From assembly GCA_022605425.2 (NCBI GenBank), contig CM061250.1, forward strand, positions 186,001-250,000: 64,000 nt of DNA, in the 5' to 3' direction. Below, piece after piece: positions 4,240 to 59,450 of the stretch. The translations under genes were made by a program, and so were the position numbers. Position 1 is the stretch's first letter; each line of letters opens with the position of its first letter. The DNA comes from Hamiltosporidium tvaerminnensis. Its lineage: Eukaryota; Microsporidia; Dubosqiidae. The notes below the pieces were generated by a model. The model was not told the DNA's origin and did no database searches. It saw only the letters and a list, made by a program, of their open reading frames with translations.

Positions 4240-4790
4240 CTAAGATTCACTTCAAATAGTTGAAACAGGGAAACTTAAGAAGTATGACCTATTAGCAAAT
4301 GAGTTAGGTCTTATTTATAAATGCAGTGTAGAGATAATTCCTTATGTGATGACCTGGGACGGTATTGTGACAAAATACCATAAGACGTATGTTAAGAGAC
4401 TGCAAATACCCATGAATGTAGAGGCATATATACAATCCATAGTACTCAAGAAGACAGTCGAAACAATTTCTTTTGATCGACGAAGAGGACTTGAGTCTGG
4501 TCCAAATGCCAAAGAGAGCTGGGTGAGAGCATCATTAAGTTCTATTTTATGAGCAGAGATGAATGAGGAACCACATTTCGTTCAAAACAAGGAAGTAGAC
4601 AACGAGGAAGATGATTTTAAAGCGGAAAATACAAAAAATATTTTACCCCTTATTTCGGATGGCATAAATAACCACAGCAAAGCAACCAACAACTAATACA
4701 AATGAAGAGTTGGAGAAAGAGATAGAAGTTGTTGAACTGGTTGAAAGAATTATTTTAGAAAAGAGAAAAATTTGTTAACCCAGAATTTTA
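4240..4790 (+). mobile_element. 3' fragment of an R2-like non-LTR retrotransposon
   Basis: An open frame from about 4240 to 4552 reads KKYDLLANELGLIYKC, then VMTWDGIVTKYHKTYVKRLQ, then IQSIVLKKTVETISFDRRRG and ESWVRASLSSIL before a stop. The same peptide, in broken form, is encoded by the minus strand at 48.4-48.7 kb and about 45.2 kb, where it lies just downstream of the Cys/His motif that is intact at 63.8 kb. It is therefore the C-terminal end of the same reverse-transcriptase polyprotein, 5'-truncated here. A stop at about 4237 closes the frame upstream. The tail to about 4790 encodes acidic residues in interrupted frames and ends near TTTGTTAACCCAGAATTTT, resembling the 3' end of the 726-bp repeat family. 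Confidence 0.75.
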
Positions 4791-4900
4791 TTAAATAAAA
4801 TTTCTAGTCATAGATAAATTTACCATTACAATACTTCTAAAATATTTCCTTACAACCCTTATATCACCTATTAAAGTAAAATAGAAAAACAACTATAAAA

Positions 4901-12296: not shown

Positions 12297-12998
12297 TTTT
12301 GGTGGTTGAAGAAAAACCAGCTAAGAAACGTTCTGCTTGGCGATGAGTATGTGAAGCAGGTGTGAAGATCGTTGTTTTGATTTTTGGTAGGAATAAAAAT
12401 ACACTAGGCTAGGTGTTTTATGGTTGCTTATATGAGGAGGCCTATGAAACATGGAAAATTTTCTATAAATATATTTTGTAGTTTTTTATGTAACCAGATT
12501 GCAGACAGCAGCTGAAATTATGGGCAATTGCCATTTAAAAGCATGGAAACCTATCCTGACCTACTTCGGTAAAAGGCCCGGTGCCTGTGAGATATAAAAA
12601 TAAAAACATTTAAAGCCGAGAAAGTTAAGTAGCAGGTTATACCTATTCGTAAGTCTTTGCACTGTCTAGGTAGACCCCATGTAAGTCTCTAAATATATCC
12701 TAGCTATAACTTTTTGGGTTCGGAAAGGGTAGAGTAAGTGGGAATGCTGCTTAGTCTTGGGGGGGGGGCTAGGTTGGGTTTCTGCCTTCGATCACACACT
12801 ATGCAACAGACATTAAAGAACTCTGAGCAACTGCCTCGCCCATTAATTGGTTCTATAAAACTTTCAGATGAAAGGCTTTGGGATGTAGGTATCATAGGAA
12901 GTACCAGTGTAGTGCTGGGGAAGCAGGTACTTGTTAAACCCAGAACTGGGTTAATGTCATAAAAACAATTTTAGGAAATAATCACTACACTTATAAAT
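12297..12998 (+). mobile_element. 726-bp repeat family, diverged copy
   Basis: Aligns along its length with the copies at 15.45, 41.9, 50.4 (reverse) and 58.7 kb. Shared blocks include TTCTGCTTGGCGATGAGT, TATGTAACCAGATTGCAGAC, AAGTAGCAGGTTATACCT, GTAGAGTAAGTGGGAATGCT and GATGAAAGGCTTTGGGA. It differs from the others in many places, including a run of nine G near 12762 and the end TTGTTAAACCCAGAACTGGG. Non-coding; an old subfamily member. Confidence 0.85.
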
Positions 12999-15450: not shown

Positions 15451-16183
15451 TGGAGGGAGTATAACCACATAAGAAACTTTCTGCTTGGCAATGAGTGTGT
15501 GAAACTGGTGTGAGGTCATTGTTTGGATTTTTGGTGGGAATAAAACCACACTACATCCTCGATCGTAACATGGGAGTTGTTATGGGGAGGAGAGGTCTAA
15601 GAAATGGTGAAACTTTTTCTACGAATTTATTTGTAGCTTTTTATGTAACCAGATTGCAGACCGTAGCTGAACATGTGGGTAATCGCCATGTAAAAACATG
15701 AAAACATAGCCTTGCTCACTCGAGTTAGAAGACTTAGCTCTGGGAGATACAAAACAAAAAACCATTAATAGCCGAAAGAGCTAAGTAGCAGGTTATACCT
15801 GTTGGTATGACATTGCACTATCTAGGTGAACTCCATATAAGTCTCTGAAATATATCTTAGCTAGAAGTTTATTAGATTCAGAAAGTGTAGAGTAAGTGGG
15901 AATGCTGCATAGTCTTGGGGAAGCCCAGGGGGGCTTCGACCTTCGATCACACTCCATGCAACGGACATTAACGAACTCCGGGCAACTGCCTCGCCTATTA
16001 ATTAGGTTCTACACACCTGGTAGATGAAAGGCTTTGGGACGTTGTTATAACAGGAGGTACGGATGGAGTGTTGGGTAGCAGTTATTTATGTTAAACCTAG
16101 AACTGCGTTAATGTCATGAAAACAAATATAACACTTGCCACTGTTTTAAAAAGATGTGATACTACAAATAAAGTTATAATTAA
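15451..16183 (+). mobile_element. 726-bp repeat family, well-preserved copy
   Basis: Starts TGGAGGGAGTATAACCACAT and ends with AAGATGTGATACTACAAATA plus a short AT tail. It is close to the copies at 50.4 kb (reverse) and 58.7 kb throughout, including the G+C-richer middle (GCCGAAAGAGCTAAGTAGCAGG, GTAGAGTAAGTGGGAATGCT). The imperfect duplication ATTTTATT(G)TATGAAA flanks it. A frame of about 68 codons at 15495-15701 has no ATG start and is not treated as a gene. It sits about 240 bases upstream of the SNARE start. Confidence 0.9.
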
Positions 16184-20469: not shown

Positions 20470-21180
20470 TTTATATCGCATTTTTTCAAATTTAAGGATT
20501 TCAAGTGTATTCATGACCTTAGTAATTTTACGTTATATATATTCTTTAACCTCTAAGACTCCATCTGTATCTCGTAGGATGTATAAATCCCAAAGCTTTT
20601 TATTCAAAACAATTATAGAAGAGTTTTATGGACAAGAAATTACCCGGGAAACGCTAATTTCCTTTGTTTGGGGTCTTATCGTAGGAAGAAACTTATCTTG
20701 AGCTTCCAAAGACTAGCAACATTTCTTCCTACTCTACACATCCTGAACAGAATATACTTTCAGCTAATATATATCCTAGTGACTTATATGGAATTTACTT
20801 AGAGGTTCAAGTGTTATATCAGCAGGTATACCCAGTCATTTAGTACTCATGGTTTTTAAAATTATATGTTTTTTTTTTATATCTTCCAGGTGCCGAGTCT
20901 CTGTATCGGTGTAACGAAGCCTCTAAGCCTTTGGTGGTAATTACATACAATCAAAACTATAAATTCTAATCTAGTTACATAAAAAACTACGAGTTTTTCT
21001 GGAAAAAAGGTTACTCTTTTTTGTTGATAAGCTTCTTCTATAAAATTTCCCATGGAAGAACCGAAAGCTAGTGTGGTTTTAATTCAAGTTAAAATCAAAA
21101 TAGGGATTTCAAGCTCCTATTTTTTCCAATCGTTGTCGAATAAAAGGTTTTTAATGTGGTAATACTTCTCTACATCACTT
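20470..21180 (-). mobile_element. 726-bp repeat family, decayed reverse copy
   Basis: On the plus strand it shows, in reverse-complement order, TTCATGACCTTAGTA, CTCCATCTGTATCTCGTAGG, CAAAGCTTTTTATTC, TTCCTACTCTACACATCCTG, ATATCAGCAGGTATACCC, TAGTTACATAAAAAACTACG, CCATGGAAGAACCGAAAGC and AATGTGGTAATACTTCTC. These match the 3' to 5' order of the copy at 50.4-51.1 kb. Many substitutions and indels; an old insertion. It ends about 400 bases upstream of the Spc25-like gene. Confidence 0.75.
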
Positions 21181-22178: not shown

Positions 22179-24774
22179 TTAAATATTGAAGATCTTCTTA
22201 TATTTTAGTTTTTACATAATTAAAATGATTTTAAATGAATAAAAGTTGGATTTATAGATTTGTTTGGAATTTATATTTTATTTATTAGTATCTATGAATT
22301 TTCTTGCTATCAAATTATCAAAACAAAATTTAAATCTTATAATATTTATAGTACTTTGAATTTTTATTTGGTTTATAAAATAGGTTGAAGTTTTATGAAG
22401 ACTAGAAAGGAGAAGAGATTTTTTTAACGAAAATATTTTTCATTACCTTGTAACAAATTTGTTATAATATCCATATCTAAATAAACCCTTTTAAAAAAAA
22501 TCCACTCGATTTAATTTAAAGTTCCAATGGTTTCATAAATTGGTTACTTCGAATGCACTGCGGTGATTCTTGCTAAAAATATATTATTAGGTCTAATAAT
22601 TCAACTTAAGCCTATTCTTAAATTTATGTTTTGTTTTAAACCATTTAAATGTCCTCAAAAATTTTAAATTACGTTTACATGAATATTTGATGGATTATGA
22701 TACAAAATTTGTTGAATGATTCACATAATCATAAGAAAACCCTTGGTTCTCTCTATATATTGATAGTCATGAATAGTATGTATCAGTATAGATTCTAACT
22801 CTCAAAGAATTGGATTCATAAACAGCAGTGTTTAATACGCTCACTGTTCTAATTAGAAGAATTTGCATATTCACCTTCTTCACTGTTCTTGAAATAGCCT
22901 AAACACTCATTGTTGATCAAAAAGACGATCTCTATTGTAATTTTTCCTGCCAATAAATGTTTCTACTATTCAAATACTTTCCCAGTTTCACCAATTTTTT
23001 CGAATGAATAAAAACAATTGTTCTATATTAGCAATCTCGGGTTCTTAATAAAGTCTGCTATGGTTGCATCTGAAAAATCTTGCATTAATCTGATGGGATT
23101 ATATGAAAATTTAAATATAAATACCTAAAAATATGAATTTTACTATGGATTGCATCTCGGGGGTTTCAATTACATTGAAATATCATTGAGTATATTTTTT
23201 ATCCCAAAACGAACAGCGGAAAATATTCTTTCCTAGAGAAAAAATTAGGCCGATTATAGAGTCCTATTAGAATCAGAAAAATAAGTTAGCAAGCCAGATT
23301 GTTCTAATGGAAACTGTTCTTCTGGGTCACTGTAATTTTTTATTTGCATTTTGAAGAATTCGATAATTACATCTCCGCATTTTACAATATACATATGAAC
23401 AAAAAATTTACTCGCTTTTAAGTTGAAAATTTAATGCAAAATTTAAATCTTTATAAAAATTGTATATATTTTACCATATTTTAATTAATTAATTTAAAAT
23501 TCGGGCTGAGATAGAATAACGGGTTTAAAACCTATCTTGTTGGCCAAGAGTGAGTGAAGTTGCTATGAAATCATTTTTGACATTTTTGTAAGATATAAAC
23601 CATTGTAACTATACGCCAATCTCCTATCATTTCGAATTACAACATATTTAAATAAGCAACTGAAAATGCCTAGTTTTCCGTTCTCTAACCTGAGAAGTAA
23701 CGCCGAATAGAACAATAGATAAGTAAGACAGATTTCAAATTTGCCAATTAAGAGTAAAAAATTGTTCTTCCCTAAAATTTTTTACCCTTTTAGACTTGAT
23801 CGAAAGTTCAACTGAACTTCTTTTAGTATTATTATTACAAAAAAGCCTTAATCTCATCAAAAATATTGTTTTCAGAAAAATTATTTTCTATTTTATAGAT
23901 AAATACCTTTCCAGAAATCTAAAACGTAATTATTGTAAAACTATTTTCTAAATAACTATTAATCGGGTTTTAATTAAGCATATTTTCAACTTTTCTATTT
24001 AATATTTGAAGAAATCTAAGAAATAATTTGCCATGAATATACCGTTAGCGTGTTTATTCCTCGTCCAAATAGAATGTAAAATGATATCTCTATTATATAT
24101 CAAATGTTTACATTTGATTGTAATCTAAAATACTCAAATAAACATCTATATGTCTTTGCATTTCCTTGATGCGTATTTCTTTTCGGTCTTCATGATAATC
24201 TTACTTCGTAATATTAAACGATAAGGCTTTTTTTTGATAATTCTTATAAACTGATTTTAATGTAAATTTAAATTTGTTTTTAATCTTGCTGTTAAAAGTT
24301 AAAAAAATCATTATCTTTATACATTTTATATATTTTGTCGTCTAAAAAGAAAATTTATCGTGTTGTCTTAATATGCATATTAAAATTATTTGTATTGATA
24401 CTTCGATACTATCCATATGAATACTAGAGATTAATGCGGTTCTTATGTGTGATTTTTATTATTAATACGAATTTTTTTCGCGATTTTTATTTAGTAGTTT
24501 AAAATGAAGGAAAAGCCTAAACTCTCTAATAATAAAGATAAAGAGTATATAAATCTCATCGAAACGGGCTATATAATTTAGAGTCAGATAGTAGGAAACT
24601 ACACATTCAATAAAAATCAAGCCTCTATATATGAAAATAAAAGTTTATTTTAATACAAGAAAAACTTAATCTAGCGTTCTCACCGTATTCTATGTTATTT
24701 TACATGTGCTATCTATATTCTAGATAATAATTTACCTCATATTATATTCGCTCTGTATTCTTAGAGGGTTTTTC
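22179..24774. other. Long non-coding stretch
   Basis: About 2.6 kb with no supported gene. On the minus strand 22750-23010 gives short coding-like pieces (TIEIVFLINNECLGYFK) broken by stops, perhaps an old transposase or gene relic that I cannot name. No copy of the other repeat families was seen. Confidence 0.55.
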
Positions 24775-30239: not shown

Positions 30240-30780
30240 GTAATCAGAATAAATTGATGATTTAAAATACCTAGATTACAGAGTTTTTCCTCAAAAAGGT
30301 TTCTATACCCCATTTACTGAGCACCACATTCCGGTGTTGATTAATGTCTGATGGAATATGTGATTAAAAATTTAAAATCACGTTTACTCTTCCTCTCCTC
30401 AAGACTAGCAGCCTTCTTATTTACATTTCAACTTCAGAACGGAATATATTTTTAACTTAAATTTATATCGACAACTAACATAGTGGTTATCTGCCTGTTT
30501 CAATATCATAGTAACAGATATAATCTGCAACTCTGCTTTTATAAATTAGAAAGTATTTTTTCCGTATAGAAAAGTATAAATATTACAATATAAATGCACA
30601 AGGCATAATACCATGCTTTTATGTGGCAACGACTTACAATTGAAAATTGTTTCAATTTAAGTAAACAAAACTACAAATTAACTTTGCAAACAAAGTTTTC
30701 ACTGTTTTTAGATCTTTCTCTTCGTATATAACTTCCGTAAAACAGTAGATGATATTCAATCGGTTTGAATTTTGAAAAAC
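30240..30780 (-). mobile_element. 726-bp repeat family, strongly decayed reverse copy
   Basis: In plus-strand order it keeps CAGAACGGAATATATTTT, a 5-10 base block near GTGGTTATCTGCCTGTTT, ATCATAGTAACAGATATAAT-CTGCAACTCTGC and CCATGCTTTTATGTGGC-AACGA. These occupy the same relative places as CTGAACCCAATAAACTTCT, GTCATACCAACAGGTATAAC-CTGCTACTTAGC and CCATGCTTTTACATGGCGATTA in the 50.4-kb copy. Ends are not definable. Confidence 0.5.
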
Positions 30781-41880: not shown

Positions 41881-42600
41881 AGTGGAGGGAGGATAACCAC
41901 ATAAAAAACTTTCTGCTTGGCAATGAGTATGTGAAACTAGTGTGAGGATCATTTTTTAAATTTTTGGTGAAAATAAAACTGCACCACCTCTTCGGTTGTT
42001 CCATGAGAGTTTGTTTGAGGAGGAGAGGTCTACAAAATGGCGAAACTTTTTCTACAAATTGATTTGTAGTTTTTTATGTAACCAGATTGCAGACCGAAGC
42101 TGAATATGTAGGTAATTACCATGTAAAAGCATGGAAACCTAGCCTTGCTCACTCGCGTTAGAAGACGTAGCGTCTGAGAGATATACAAATAAAAACGATT
42201 AAAAGCCGGGAGAGCTAAGTAGCAGGTTATACCTGTTGGTATGACATTGCACTATCTAGGTAGACCCCATGTAAGTCTCTGAAATATATCTTAGCTAGAA
42301 GTTATGGGGTTCAGAAAGTGTAGAGTAGGTGGGAATAGTACATAGTCTTAGGGGAGCCCATGGGAAGGGGCTTAGATCATACTCTATGCAACGAATATTA
42401 ACAAACTCCGGGCAATTACATCGCCTATTAATTGGGTTCCACACACCTGATAAATGAAAGCCTTTGGAATTTAGGTATCGCAGGGGTTACCGATGGAGTG
42501 TTGGGGTAGCAGTTATTTATGTTGAACTTATAAGTGCTTTAATTTCATAAAAAAATCCAAAACTGCTAATTTCTTAAAAAGTTGAAGTATATATTAAGTA
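41881..42600 (+). mobile_element. 726-bp repeat family, copy at 41.9 kb
   Basis: Starts AGTGGAGGGAGGATAACCAC. All internal blocks are present in order (TTCTGCTTGGCAATGAGT, TATGTAACCAGATTGCAGAC, CCGGGAGAGCTAAGTAGCAG, GTAGAGTAGGTGGGAATAG, CATCGCCTATTAATTGG, GGGGTAGCAGTTATTTATG). The 3' end is diverged, so no clear duplication was found. It lies downstream of the Rna14 gene (convergent side). Confidence 0.88.
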
Positions 42601-48175: not shown

Positions 48176-48239
48176 TTTTATTTTTAAATTTTGAGTAAAA
48201 AAGGTTTTTTTTTTAAATGAATTTCTTCCTTCATTTAAA

Positions 48240-49000
48240 AACTTCAATACCTTCCTCCGAATCCGCTGTTTTGTTTAGGTTTATTGTCGGTTATTACCTT
48301 GGTTTCACCATTAAAATAAGGGTTGTATCATTTCTTGTTTTACTATTTATCAGCATCTTCCTGATTAATTTCTTGACTTAATGTGAGTATTGGTTTTTTA
48401 TGTATTTTGGATCCTTCAATAACACTTAATGACGCTCTCACCCAGCTCTCTTAATAATTTAATTCTGATTCAGATCTTCTTGATCGATGAAAATGAAATA
48501 TTCAAACTGCATTTTTTGTGCACTATCTACTGAATATATGTCTCTCATTCATAGGTATTCATAGTTTTTAAGATACATTCAATTATTTTGTCATAATACT
48601 GTCCTAGGTCATCAAATATAAAACTATCTCCATATTATGTTTATATATAAGATTAAGTTCTGGCTAATAGGTCATAATTCCTAAGTTTCTCTGGTTCAAC
48701 TATTTGAATTTAATTTGGGAAGTCATTCCTATTAAATAAGAGTAAGTCCTTTTTAATTTTGTCTAAAATAAAATAAGTCTATTGTTGCGAATTTTAGCAT
48801 CGGTTTTGATTCGGATGTTCCCTCTTTTTTTGCCGCAAACTCGTTATCAATAATTTTTGAAATGAGTGACTCCTATTTCATTTTGAGATTTAAGTTTATA
48901 TGAGTATAGAAGACGTGCACTAATATATTTGACTACTTTATTATGCCGTCGGATAGTCATGTTTATACCTTTCCTCACAATGAGTCATTAAATTCTACTG
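48240..49000 (-). mobile_element. Decayed R2-like retrotransposon copy
   Basis: Read on the minus strand from 49000 to 48240, it runs from the part encoding the (GH)DYxRRHxEV block through VTHF-like sequence to the region of KYDLLA, VMTWDG and ESWVRASLS (CAGAGAGCTGGGTGAGAGCG-type sequence near 48430-48450). This reproduces the order of the 63.6-kb and 4.3-kb pieces and so links them into one element. Frame is lost in many places. Confidence 0.8.
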
Positions 49001-50364
49001 TTTTACCAGATGTTTAGTCAAGGACAAAATTTTTAACTGTTTAAATAAAAAAAAGCAAAATTTGTAGTAAAAATAAATAAAAGATACATCATTGCTACTG
49101 ATTTAGCTCATTATTATATTTTTGTTTATTCTTGTCACATATTTTTATTGTTCTCCATTTTACATCATTAAATGAAGCAATATTTTTTTTTATAAATCTA
49201 GTAAATATTGCCCAATTATATAAAAAATATACTTTGATATATTTTTGTGTTCATTTGGCAATTACTATTTCTCAGATATATATCATTTCGAAAATTATGC
49301 TCTAGTATGTCTTGCTGGGTTTAAATAACTAATATTCAAGTTTTAACTGCAACATATTTCATTTTGGCTAAAAATCGTATTTTTTTCTTGAGTAATATAG
49401 ATATTTTAGACTGATTATGTAACTAAATCGATTAAAAAAGCATTTATTTACAGATGAAATTTTGATTTATAAGGCACGTCTTATCTTATTTGGCAACAAT
49501 ATATTTTTCTTTTAAACCCAGGGTAAGATGGAAATATAAAAGAAAGTTAAACTTACAGGGGGTTGAGATTCTAAAAATTAGAATTAATTGGAAAAATATT
49601 TCATTTAAAAAGATGTATATTGTCTAACACCTAAATACAATGCTAATATATTTGTTTAGTTACATTCAATGGAGATCTTTATACTGTAAACTTAGTTCGA
49701 TGCAGTTTGATTTAAAAAAATTCTCTTTATTTTAAATTTTTTTTATTTGCATTTATTAAGGATTTATATGTAGAAGCTTTAGATTTTAATTGTATTATCT
49801 TGTAATATAATTTTAAATATCCTTTTAAGAGAATCTCTAAATTTTCGAAGGATTTCTCAAGAATTATCGAAGTTTTTCTTATGTTTTATAGTTTCACACA
49901 GTTATATGGTTTTATAGGTTAAATGAATTTCGAAACTAATAATTAGATATTAAAGAAATAATAATGCGGTAATCTGAGCTATTAATTTTTTTTTCTTTAA
50001 ATATGCAATTCTAAAATCGAGGTAATTTACTATATAATTAAACCTCTTTCAACTCCAAATTTGTATTTTAGTATCATATTTCTTAAGATATCAATTAGTT
50101 TGTATTCTCAGTTCTTTGAATTCCGGAATATTTATTCTTATAGTTTTAATCGTTAATGACCAGTCTTTGAAAAATTAAGCATCTATTACGGTTTTAACAT
50201 AGAAAGACACAGTATAAATGCGGCATTATATATAGTGAATTACATTTAAACTAAAATTTTTGTGACTGTTTTGAATTTTTAGTGGACACCATTATAAAAT
50301 TCAAAAAAAGTGTTTGAATATATTTTGTGCTGTATCCATTTTAAATATCATTTAATTAGAAATA
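49001..50364. other. Non-coding stretch
   Basis: About 1.36 kb of AT-rich sequence, no supported gene. The first part may be a decayed 5' continuation of the R2-like copy. Confidence 0.55.
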
Positions 50365-51090
50365 CTTTATTTAAAAATATCACATCTTTTTACAATAGTG
50401 GCAAGTGTTATATTTGTTTTCATGACATTAACGCAGTTCTAGGTTTAACATAAATAACTGCTACCCCAACACTCCATCGGTAACCCCTGCGATACCTACG
50501 TCCCAAAGCCTTTCATTTACCAGGTGTGTAGAACCTAATTACTAGGCGAGGCAGTTGCCCGGAGTTCGTTAATGTCCGTTGCATGGAGTGTGATCGAAGG
50601 CCGAAGCCCCCTTTAGGCTTACCAAGACTATGCAGCATTCCCACTTACTCTACACTTTCTGAACCCAATAAACTTCTAGCTAAGATATATTTCAGAGATT
50701 TACATGGGGTCCACCTAGACAGTGCAATGTCATACCAACAGGTATAACCTGCTACTTAGCTCTCCCGGCTTTTAATGGGTTTTATTTTTATATCTCCCAG
50801 GCGCTAAGTCTTCTAACGCGAGTGAGCAAGGCTAGGTTTCCATGCTTTTACATGGCGATTACCCACATGTTCAGCTGCGGTCTGCAATCTGGTTACATAA
50901 AAAACTACAAATAAATTCGTAGAAAAAGTTTCACCATTTCTTAGACCTCTCCTCCTCATAACAACTCCCATGGAACAACCGAAGATGTAGTGTGGTTGTA
51001 TTCCCACCAAAAATCCAAACAATGATCTCACACCAGTTTCACACACTCATTGCCAAGCAGAAAGTTTTTTATGTGGTTATCCTCCCTCCA
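50365..51090 (-). mobile_element. 726-bp repeat family, well-preserved reverse copy
   Basis: The minus strand reads TGGAGGGAGGATAACCACAT at 51090 down to AAAAGATGTGATATTTTTAA-ATAAAG at 50365, 726 bp, the same length as the 58.7-kb copy. It is very similar to the 15.45- and 58.7-kb copies. A 77-codon frame (50813-51046) parallels the one at 15495 but starts at a non-ATG codon. Just upstream on the same strand lies the end of a LINE coding region (51150-51446), which may or may not belong to it. No target-site duplication could be found. Confidence 0.9.
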
Positions 51091-51149: not shown

Positions 51150-51446
51150 TGAAGATGATTCAGTTTACTTACTTTCTTATTCCAGTCTTCTTGTACCTCT
51201 CGGTGTTGAGGATTATCAAATAAAACGCTAACATGTTCTGTCTCTAGACAATGCCCTGGTATTTTCTGGGTCTATTCTTTTTTCGTGGAAGACCGGTTTC
51301 AATGAGTCAAACAATTTCAACCTTGGTCTTCCTCTTTGTCGTTTTCCCTCACATCTTGCTTCATATGTTCGTTAGGAATTCTTATAGTTTGAATTCAGCT
51401 TATATGCCAGAACCAGAGCAATTTTTGTCTATCCATAGATGATTTG
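51150..51446 (-). mobile_element. 3' coding end of a second LINE type (GRPR motif)
   Basis: Minus-strand peptides, with one frame change, read RQKLLWFWHI, RIPNEHMKQ, then CEGKRQRGRPRLKLFDSLKP and LSRDRT. This is the order found at the C-terminus of LINE reverse transcriptases: R-x-L-x-WFGH, R-x-P, then G-(K)-R-x-RGRP(R)-x-x-W-x-D, and finally a LA-x-DR-x-x-WR block. Only about 300 bases are readable. It differs from the R2-like element of this window, which has a Cys/His motif instead. Confidence 0.65.
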
Positions 51447-58692: not shown

Positions 58693-58708
58693 ATTATATT
58701 TTGCCAAA
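58693..58708 (+). repeat. Left 16-bp target-site duplication
   Basis: ATTATATTTTGCCAAA, identical to 59435-59450, immediately flanks the 58.7-kb repeat copy on its left. Confidence 0.85.
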
Positions 58709-59434
58709 AGTGGAGGGAGAATAATCACATAAAATATTTTTGTTTGGCAATGAGTGTGTGAAACTGGTGTGAGATCATTGTTTATATTTTTGATGGTAAT
58801 AAAAGAACACTGCATCTTCGGTTGTTCCATAGGGGTTTTTATGAAGAGGAGAGGTCTGAGAAATGGAGAAACTTTTTCTACAAAGTTATTGTAGTTTTTT
58901 ACGTAACCAGATTGCAGACCGCTGCTAAACTTGTAGGTAATTGCCATGTAAAAGCATGGAAACCTAGCCTTGCTCACTCGGGTTAGAAGACTTAGCTTGG
59001 GAGATATAAAAATAAAAACCATTAAAAGCCGGGAGACCTAAGTAGCAGGTTATAACTGTTGATATGACATTGCACTATCTAGTTGAACTCCATATAGGTC
59101 TCTGAAATATATCTTAGCTAGAAGTTTAATGGTTCAGAAGTGTAGAGTAAGTGGGAATGCTGCATAGTCTTGAGGGAGTCCAGGGGGCTTCGGCCTTCGA
59201 TCACACTTCATGCAACGGACATTAAAAAACTCCGGGTAACTGCCTCGCCTAATAATTAGGTTCTACACACCTGGTAGATGAAAGGCTTTGGGACGTAGGT
59301 ATTACAGGGGTTACCGATAGAGTGTTGGGGTAGCAGTCATTTATGTTAAACCTAGAGCTGCGTTAATGACATGAAAACAAATATAACACTTGCACCTATT
59401 TTCTAAAAGATGTGATACTTTTAAATAAAGATGA
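58709..59434 (+). mobile_element. 726-bp repeat family, copy with perfect 16-bp target-site duplication
   Basis: Begins AGTGGAGGGAGAATAATCAC and ends GATACTTTTAAATAAAGATGA. It is bounded on both sides by ATTATATTTTGCCAAA. A duplication this long, with no inverted repeats at the element ends and no coding capacity, is what target-primed reverse transcription leaves (SINEs, truncated LINEs), not cut-and-paste transposition. Length agrees with the copy at 50.4 kb (726 bp). Inserted just upstream of the 57-58.6-kb gene in divergent orientation; the lack of differences in the duplication suggests a recent event. Confidence 0.92.
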
Positions 59435-59450
59435 ATTATATTTTGCCAAA
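59435..59450 (+). repeat. Right 16-bp target-site duplication
   Basis: ATTATATTTTGCCAAA, identical to 58693-58708; marks the 3' boundary of the inserted element. Confidence 0.85.

What the first reader, a model, noticed from the sequence alone, without database searches (positions are those of the whole stretch)
58693..59450. Non-autonomous 726-bp retro-family proven by a perfect 16-bp target-site duplication
ATTATATTTTGCCAAA stands directly on both sides of the element, whose two ends coincide with those of the 50.4-kb copy. No coding capacity, no inverted ends and a long duplication point to reverse-transcription-based insertion by another element's machinery. At least nine copies or relics of different age lie in this 64-kb window, so the family is likely very abundant in the genome. 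I do not know a described microsporidian family with these features.
Basis: partly seen in the sequence, partly recalled or inferred. Interest (0 to 1): 0.75.

Follow-up and report, generated by a model that had tools for sequence, protein, structure and literature searches.

The report
SINE hitching on a microsporidian LINE
In a microsporidian parasite genome, a 0.73-kb repeat without genes sits in more than six hundred places and very probably spreads by borrowing the copying enzyme of a larger, equally common retrotransposon that leaves the same scars and, in one place seen, used the same insertion site.

Summary
The copy at 58709-59434 is flanked by an exact 16-bp duplication. The window lies in a 21.64-Mb, 17-contig genome that fits Hamiltosporidium tvaerminnensis. 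Of 30 well-preserved genome copies, 26 carry a direct repeat of at least 12 nt (median 13); none of 870 mismatched flank pairs exceeds 11. There are 657 five-prime ends (control 0). No ORF above 58 aa (4 copies), no terminal inverted repeats, no tRNA/5S/7SL head found.

A partner can be proposed: a 3.8-kb LINE with an R2-like endonuclease and 707 three-prime ends. It shares TSD length (median 13), target profile (r=0.60) and terminal TTAAATAAA. At C5:627-632 kb a LINE and a SINE used the same target: TTAGAGGGAAA stands before, between and after them; two other tandem pairs read do not show this. Two interrupted sites have uninterrupted paralogues.

It works like Entamoeba's EhSINE/EhLINE pairs: a new member of a known kind. 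The origin of its 727-nt body is unknown; trans-mobilisation is inferred.

The parts
58693..58708 (.). upstream copy of the 16-bp target-site duplication ATTATATTTTGCCAAA
   Evidence: read directly; script
58709..59434 (+). SINE-like element; conserved part 58710 (GTGGAGG) to 59429 (AAATAAA); 58709 and 59430-59434 are short junction extras
   Evidence: alignment with 30 genome copies and four window copies
59421..59429 (+). terminal TTAAATAAA, the 9 nt shared with the 3' terminus of the proposed partner LINE
59435..59450 (.). downstream copy of the 16-bp target-site duplication
50365..51090 (-). near full-length copy, 2.3% from the majority sequence, no TSD found by the script
15451..16173 (+). 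near full-length copy, 7.2% diverged; only a weak 9-nt TSD candidate
41881..42553 (+). older copy, aligned over element 1-669, 12% diverged
12331..12968 (+). old relic, aligned over element 30-672, 20.5% diverged
20709..20888 (-). fragment (element 290-463)
   Evidence: E 2e-17
23540..23588 (+). possible small fragment (element 36-84)
   Evidence: E 7e-5
30611..30698 (-). possible small fragment (element 161-251)
   Evidence: E 3e-4
4242..4800 (+). 3' part of a partner-type LINE (77-89% to L061-L064)
48176..49011 (-). relic of the partner-type LINE, about 70% identity
63569..64000 (+). partner-type LINE piece cut by the window end (88% to L061)

Best explanation
It is a SINE-like, non-autonomous non-LTR retrotransposon. 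A transcript of about 730 nt ending in ...UUAAAUAAA is taken up in trans by the reverse transcriptase/endonuclease of an abundant 3.8-kb LINE with an R2-like (restriction-like) endonuclease. That enzyme nicks the bottom strand of AT-rich DNA just left of the future duplication, primes cDNA synthesis at the AAUAAA end of the RNA, and a second nick about 13 nt away gives the duplication. Shown: the element, its ends, its TSDs, uninterrupted paralogues, the LINE's existence, domains and TSDs, and one doubly used target. Inferred: that this LINE's protein does the work. Also inferred: transcription by RNA polymerase II rather than III, since all 30 copies checked contain a run of at least six T (near position 190 in the three printed), and no tRNA-, 5S- or 7SL-like head was found.
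For: TSDs: SINE 30 loci, median 13, >=12 nt in 26 of 30; LINE 23 of 24 copies tried (L070 skipped), median 13, >=12 nt in 17 of 23; both nulls max 11. Shared terminal TTAAATAAA: 21 of 23 LINE copies have the last A; after it, 23 of 28 SINE loci have a G. Base profile around the first-nick site correlates between SINE (28) and LINE (19) insertions, r=0.60, reached in 0.15% of 2000 register-shifted controls. C5: TTAGAGGGAAA stands before the LINE, between LINE and SINE, and after the SINE. Same-strand LINE-to-SINE neighbours within 30 nt: one search gave 14 matches at 13 SINEs; 4 are LINE ends (C1:1178, C5:628, C14:86, C17:445), 5 are not, 4 were not read; 0.32 expected. LINE protein: RT; CX2C...H...C and PD-E-K-KY residues invariant or nearly so in alignments of 16 and 37 sequences; C-terminal model (pLDDT 84.6) has 7 PDB matches at E<=1e-3, all R2 proteins. 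Uninterrupted paralogues for L023 and L011. No TIR, no ORF above 58 aa in 4 copies.
Against: Only 9 nt are shared at the 3' ends (EhSINE1 shares about 100 with its LINE; PMC2996970, passage), and in an AT-rich genome that alone is weak. The target profile rests on 28 and 19 sites with uncertain registers. The LINE copies were picked for long open frames, the SINE copies for score. Of three tandem LINE/SINE pairs whose far LINE flank I read (C5, C2:1279, C1:1178), only C5 shows three TSD copies. The uniform expectation for neighbours ignores clustering in AT-rich DNA. 5' truncation, usual for LINE products, looks rare: 657 five-prime against 688 three-prime ends. Other RT families exist, including one whose ORF I read by eye as carrying a cellular-type (APE) endonuclease, L065 (no Pfam endonuclease hit); its insertions were not tested. 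RNA fold is not unusually stable (z -0.56).
Confidence: 0.87

Rival explanations
1. The element is a SINE-like retroelement moved by a different LINE of the same genome, for example the family in L065 that appears to carry a cellular-type (APE) endonuclease.
For: Several RT families exist (150 scored of 456 candidates). The shared 3' end with the R2-type LINE is only 9 nt. Variable 10-20 bp TSDs also fit APE-type LINEs in general (established knowledge).
Against: The R2-type LINE matches in TSD length, 3' terminus, target profile and one shared target. By match span most of the 150 listed RT hits look like this type, but I read only four of them in full.
Confidence: 0.08
2. It is an internally deleted fragment of a longer autonomous LINE whose coding part has been lost. 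Such a claim has been made for protozoan SINEs in general (cited in PMC2996970, passage).
For: Non-autonomous elements often arise so; the last 9 nt resemble those of the LINE.
Against: No part of the body matches the 35 RT-bearing loci held (some overlap each other) except pieces in L048 at E 1e-10 to 3e-8, read as a degraded SINE; the other hits have E of 1 or more. The 5' ends differ (GTGGAGG against ATGGGTA). The flanks of 30 copies show no common extension.
Confidence: 0.04
3. It is a DNA transposon derivative (MITE) or a solo LTR.
For: Short, non-coding, abundant, flanked by repeats.
Against: No terminal inverted repeats; TSDs vary around 13 nt instead of a fixed short length; ends are GTGG...AAATAAA, not TG...CA; 3' junction extras vary.
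Confidence: 0.01

Closest known systems
Entamoeba histolytica EhSINE1 with EhLINE1
   Same: About 0.5-0.6 kb, non-coding, no known precursor small RNA, only limited similarity to A and B boxes, TSDs commonly 9-24 bp, T-rich targets, partner LINE with CCHC and PD(X)10-14D endonuclease that nicks where a SINE inserted (PMC2996970 and PMC3118788, passages).
   Different: Different host, no sequence relation looked for; here 0.73 kb; the internal 26-27 bp repeats of EhSINE1 were not looked for here; EhSINE1 shares about 100 bp of 3' end with its LINE, here only 9 nt; its authors expect polymerase III, I infer II.
R2/R4/Dong-type LINEs with a restriction-like endonuclease
   Same: The proposed partner: one long ORF, RT, CCHC plus PD-E-K motif, C-terminal fold like R2. 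Dong-R4 LINEs are listed for Nosema bombycis (PMC3614468, passages).
   Different: Not site-specific like R2; in 6 of 19 copies the ATG follows the TSD directly; clade not tested by a tree.
Canonical SINEs (tRNA, 7SL or 5S head; Alu, B2 and others; recalled)
   Same: Short, non-autonomous, TSDs, depends on a LINE.
   Different: No such head found; internal T runs that should stop RNA polymerase III; longer than most.

Membership tests
SINE (broad sense: short non-autonomous non-LTR retroelement) | dispersed multicopy, under about 1 kb, no coding capacity | tested here: met
   657 five-prime ends; longest ORF 58 aa in the 4 copies checked
SINE (broad sense: short non-autonomous non-LTR retroelement) | variable target-site duplications about 7-20 bp | tested here: met
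   30 loci, median 13; >=12 nt in 26 of 30; null max 11 in 870 pairs
SINE (broad sense: short non-autonomous non-LTR retroelement) | 3' end shared with a partner LINE | tested here: inconclusive
   only TTAAATAAA, 9 nt, in common
Canonical SINE with RNA polymerase III head | tRNA, 7SL or 5S derived head with A and B boxes | tested here: not met
   Rfam best E 0.33, below every gathering score; ARAGORN none; box-like matches no better than shuffles in the copy scanned, T>=6 run inside 30 of 30 copies
EhSINE-type SINE | 0.5-0.6 kb, no clear A/B boxes, moved by a restriction-like-endonuclease LINE with which it shares its 3' end | tested here: inconclusive
   features match in part; length 0.73 kb; 9 nt instead of about 100 shared; movement by the LINE inferred; no homology claimed
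MITE / DNA transposon | terminal inverted repeats and fixed TSD length | tested here: not met
Solo LTR or TRIM | TG...CA ends and 4-6 bp TSD | tested here: not met
   ends GTGG...AAATAAA, TSD median 13
Restriction-like-endonuclease LINE (the partner) | RT followed by CCHC and PD-D/E endonuclease with R2-like fold | tested here: met
R4/Dong clade (the partner) | position in an RT phylogeny | not tested
   no tree with named reference elements was built

The most novel reading that the evidence does not exclude
The LINE enzyme recognises little more than a terminal UUAAAUAAA, which contains the polyadenylation signal, so priming starts at the signal itself and any transcript ending there can be copied. 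The SINE would then be an arbitrary, RNA polymerase II-made 0.7-kb RNA captured by that minimal signal, and target sites with a first insertion would be hot spots for the next one.
Probability: 0.2. Interest if true: 0.62.

Novelty: new member of a known kind. Interest (0 to 1): 0.45.

Why it matters
Published repeat figures for this genome leave 25.45% of it as 'other' repeats (PMC10542269, passages); whether this family was counted there I could not see, but one family of about 2% could be given a name and a mechanism. It gives microsporidia a defined SINE/LINE pair beside that of Entamoeba, with insertion markers whose ancestral state is known, useful for strain and population work. It also offers a pair in which the RNA requirement may be as short as nine bases, so the minimal signal for trans-mobilisation could be tested directly.

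Tried and rejected
Known RNA ancestry: Rfam with permissive threshold on the window copy and on a younger copy gave only chance-level hits; ARAGORN none on L005; fold no more stable than shuffles. Coding capacity: longest ORF 58 aa in 4 copies. Longer parent element: flanks of 30 copies compared; recurrent neighbours are LINE ends, plus one unexplained 60-nt match of L012 to window 51167-51226, 47 nt off the boundary. Sequence sharing between SINE body and RT loci: only pieces in L048. Three TSD copies around a LINE/SINE tandem: seen in one of three pairs whose far LINE flank was read; a fourth, C1:1630, was fetched but the piece did not reach the LINE end. L018 as an uninterrupted paralogue: low-complexity alignment, not used. 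Relatives elsewhere: a 26-mer of the body has no exact match in the prokaryote and viral contig collections, as expected for a eukaryote. Literature on microsporidian SINEs; no listed title or abstract start describes such a family, but I opened only one of the listed papers (PMC3614468, passages); most subscription papers are not held.

Full report
What was checked. The element at 58709-59434 and its flanks were read directly. ATTATATTTTGCCAAA occurs exactly at 58693-58708 and 59435-59450. The window is G000:C5:186001-250000 of a 21,638,905-bp genome in 17 contigs, 26.0% GC in the window. This fits the H. tvaerminnensis assembly: 21.64 Mb, 17 contigs, 26.6% GC (PMC10542269, passages). The best named protein relatives of the LINE are also from that species. 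The species is inferred; the genome itself is unnamed.

Copy number. The whole-genome search scored 40 copies of 1243 first-look candidates. A 22-base five-prime pattern with up to 3 mismatches has 330 + 327 = 657 sites, reversed control 0. A 22-base three-prime pattern has 353 + 335 = 688, control 6. The near-equal numbers suggest that most copies keep both ends; the ends were not paired one by one. With about 727 nt each this is about 0.48 Mb, 2.2% of the genome (arithmetic). Of the 30 loci cut out (the best 30 of the 40 scored), 29 lie 0.7-2.2% from the majority sequence. The window copy itself is older: 7.5%.

Target-site duplications. Thirty loci were tested with fixed search windows left of GTGGAGG and right of AAATAAA. 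The longest shared word has median 13 and reaches 12 nt in 26 of 30. The 870 mismatched pairs of left and right flanks give mean 4.7 and maximum 11. The four below 12 nt are L005 (10), L024 (9), L029 (7) and L004 (4). L004 does have a 13-nt TSD, outside a partial duplication of the element's own first bases. Five-prime junction extras are 0-3 nt in the 28 loci with a TSD of 9 nt or more; three-prime extras are 0-13 nt and differ among loci.

Empty sites. Joining flanks over one TSD and comparing with the DNA held gave two usable uninterrupted relatives. L023's target is an old LINE copy, and the LINE in L061 holds the 12-nt TSD once at the homologous place (68 of 96 columns identical around the junction). 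L011's target is a local, internally repetitive sequence present uninterrupted at two places in the window (24.8-25.4 kb, 69 of 90; 26.07-26.2 kb, 78 of 91), where the TSD counterpart differs by a few bases. A third candidate, L018, was low-complexity and is not counted.

No longer parent. Flanks of the 30 loci were compared with each other, with the window and with the RT-bearing loci. No sequence common to the copies continues across the boundaries. Five loci (L007, L013, L020, L029, L030) have a LINE ending within about 60 nt of the SINE boundary, L023 lies inside an old LINE, and L012 has one unexplained 60-nt match to window 51167-51226 starting 47 nt off its boundary.

The partner. RT domains are abundant (150 scored of 456 candidates). 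Four elements of one type were read in L061-L064: one open frame of 1258-1287 codons from stop to stop, 1253 from the first ATG in L061, with an RT domain in the two scanned. The ATG stands 0-14 nt after the TSD in 19 copies, and a short 3' tail ends in TTAAATAA, followed by A in 21 of 23 copies. In an alignment of 16 sequences the C-terminal residues C981, H993, C998, P1066, D1067, E1095, K1098, K1101 and Y1102 are invariant and C984 and E1082 nearly so, the pattern of a CCHC plus PD-E-K restriction-like endonuclease (motif recalled, and given as CCHC and PD(X)10-14D for the Entamoeba LINE1 endonucleases in PMC3118788). The C-terminal 541 residues were modelled with 37 sequences (mean pLDDT 84.6). 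All 7 PDB matches at E<=0.001 are R2 retrotransposon proteins. By sequence alone the best PDB matches to the whole frame are an entry named RNA-directed DNA polymerase (8c8j) and human-type L1 ORF2p, then R2, mostly over the RT part. The 3' end of the LINE has 707 sites at up to 2 mismatches, control 0. The 5' end of one subfamily has 146, which suggests but does not prove 5' truncation, since other subfamilies are not counted.

Why this LINE moves the SINE. (a) TSD length: 23 LINE copies, median 13, 12 nt or more in 17 of 23, null max 11 in 506 pairs; one of 24 tried (L070) was skipped for lack of an anchor; the copies were picked for long open frames. (b) Same terminal TTAAATAAA. (c) Same target profile: T-minus-A preference along 20 positions correlates at r=0.60 between 28 SINE and 19 LINE sites; 2000 register-shifted controls have mean -0.07, and 0.15% reach it. 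(d) One target used twice: at C5, in element orientation, the order is TTAGAGGGAAA - LINE - TTAGAGGGAAA - SINE - TTAGAGGGAAA; the word does not occur in the 64-kb window. (e) Same-strand LINE ends within 30 nt upstream of SINEs: one search gave 14 matches at 13 SINEs; 4 are LINE ends, 5 are not, 4 were not read. If both elements were placed uniformly 0.32 would be expected. Point (e) overstates the case if both cluster in AT-rich DNA. Two other tandem pairs whose far LINE flank I read do not show three TSD copies (C2:1279, C1:1178).

How it would work. By the target-primed model, which is established for R2, the first nick is at the left edge of the TSD and the RNA 3' end is copied first. After AAATAAA, 23 of 28 SINE junctions go on with G, often G or GT alone and sometimes up to about twelve further bases. 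That fits priming at or just after the polyadenylation signal. RNA polymerase III is unlikely: a run of at least six T lies inside 30 of 30 copies, and A/B box matches in the one copy scanned are no better than in shuffled sequence. This step is inference; no transcript data were seen.

Comparison. EhSINE1 of Entamoeba histolytica is the nearest described system in kind: 500-600 bp, TSDs commonly 9-24 bp, T-rich targets, no known precursor small RNA, only limited similarity to A and B boxes, partner LINE with CCHC and PD(X)10-14D endonuclease nicking at a SINE insertion site (PMC2996970 and PMC3118788, passages read). The first of these papers also says that about 100 bp of 3' end are shared with the partner LINE, that its authors expect polymerase III, and that by a strict definition with tRNA or 7SL head such elements are not SINEs. 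By that strict definition the present element is not one either. No sequence relation is claimed. For microsporidia, papers read in passages report LINE families (PMC4202319) and, in a Nosema bombycis table, 'Dong-R4' LINEs 1.04% and 'SINE' 0.18% without description (PMC3614468). A 2025 comparison of nine microsporidia that includes this species has no whole-word 'SINE' in its main text (PMC12449221); nor has a 2020 study of microsporidian transposable elements (PMC7313128). Searches for microsporidia with SINE(s), and for Hamiltosporidium with SINE, listed no description of such a family; of the listed papers I opened one.

Verdict. The element is a new member of a known kind. What stays open is the origin of the 727-nt body, the promoter, and how much of the RNA the LINE enzyme needs.

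Noticed in passing
L061-L064 and the LINE ends L066-L105: The LINE has almost no 5' untranslated part: in 6 of 19 copies the ATG of the long frame follows the TSD directly.
   Followed up: partly
L121 (G000:C1:1294280-1294480): Three head-to-tail copies of a 59-nt unit made of the SINE's last 43 nt plus a TSD-like 16-mer; either serial insertions of truncated copies in one site or a local tandem duplication.
   Followed up: no
L126 (C6:280700-280860) and L122/L123 (C2:170780-171660): LINE-to-LINE and SINE-to-SINE tandem pairs separated by 11-14 nt, suggesting that a first insertion leaves a target open to the next.
   Followed up: partly
L004 5' end: A full-length SINE copy preceded by a repeat of its own first 22 nt, with the TSD outside it: perhaps a 5' junction made by template jumping or slippage.
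   Followed up: partly
protein hits P0056-P0117: Relatives of this LINE (about 41-51% identity) are named from octopus, dust mite, wasp, Babesia and Theileria; either contamination or horizontal transfer.
   Followed up: no
L065 (C13:57000-63000); RT hits of similar span at C9:2559 and C4:7827: A second LINE family with a 939-codon frame that by eye starts with a cellular-type endonuclease before the RT; RT hits of similar match span lie near contig ends, kinship not checked.
   Followed up: no
L007 (SINE orientation, upstream LINE end): The LINE's last bases are doubled (TTATTAAATAAATTTATTAAATAAA), perhaps a slippage sign at the start of reverse transcription.
   Followed up: no
L012 right flank 47-103 and window 51167-51226: A 60-nt, 85% match between the upstream flanks of two SINE copies, 47 nt off the boundary; not explained.
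   Followed up: no
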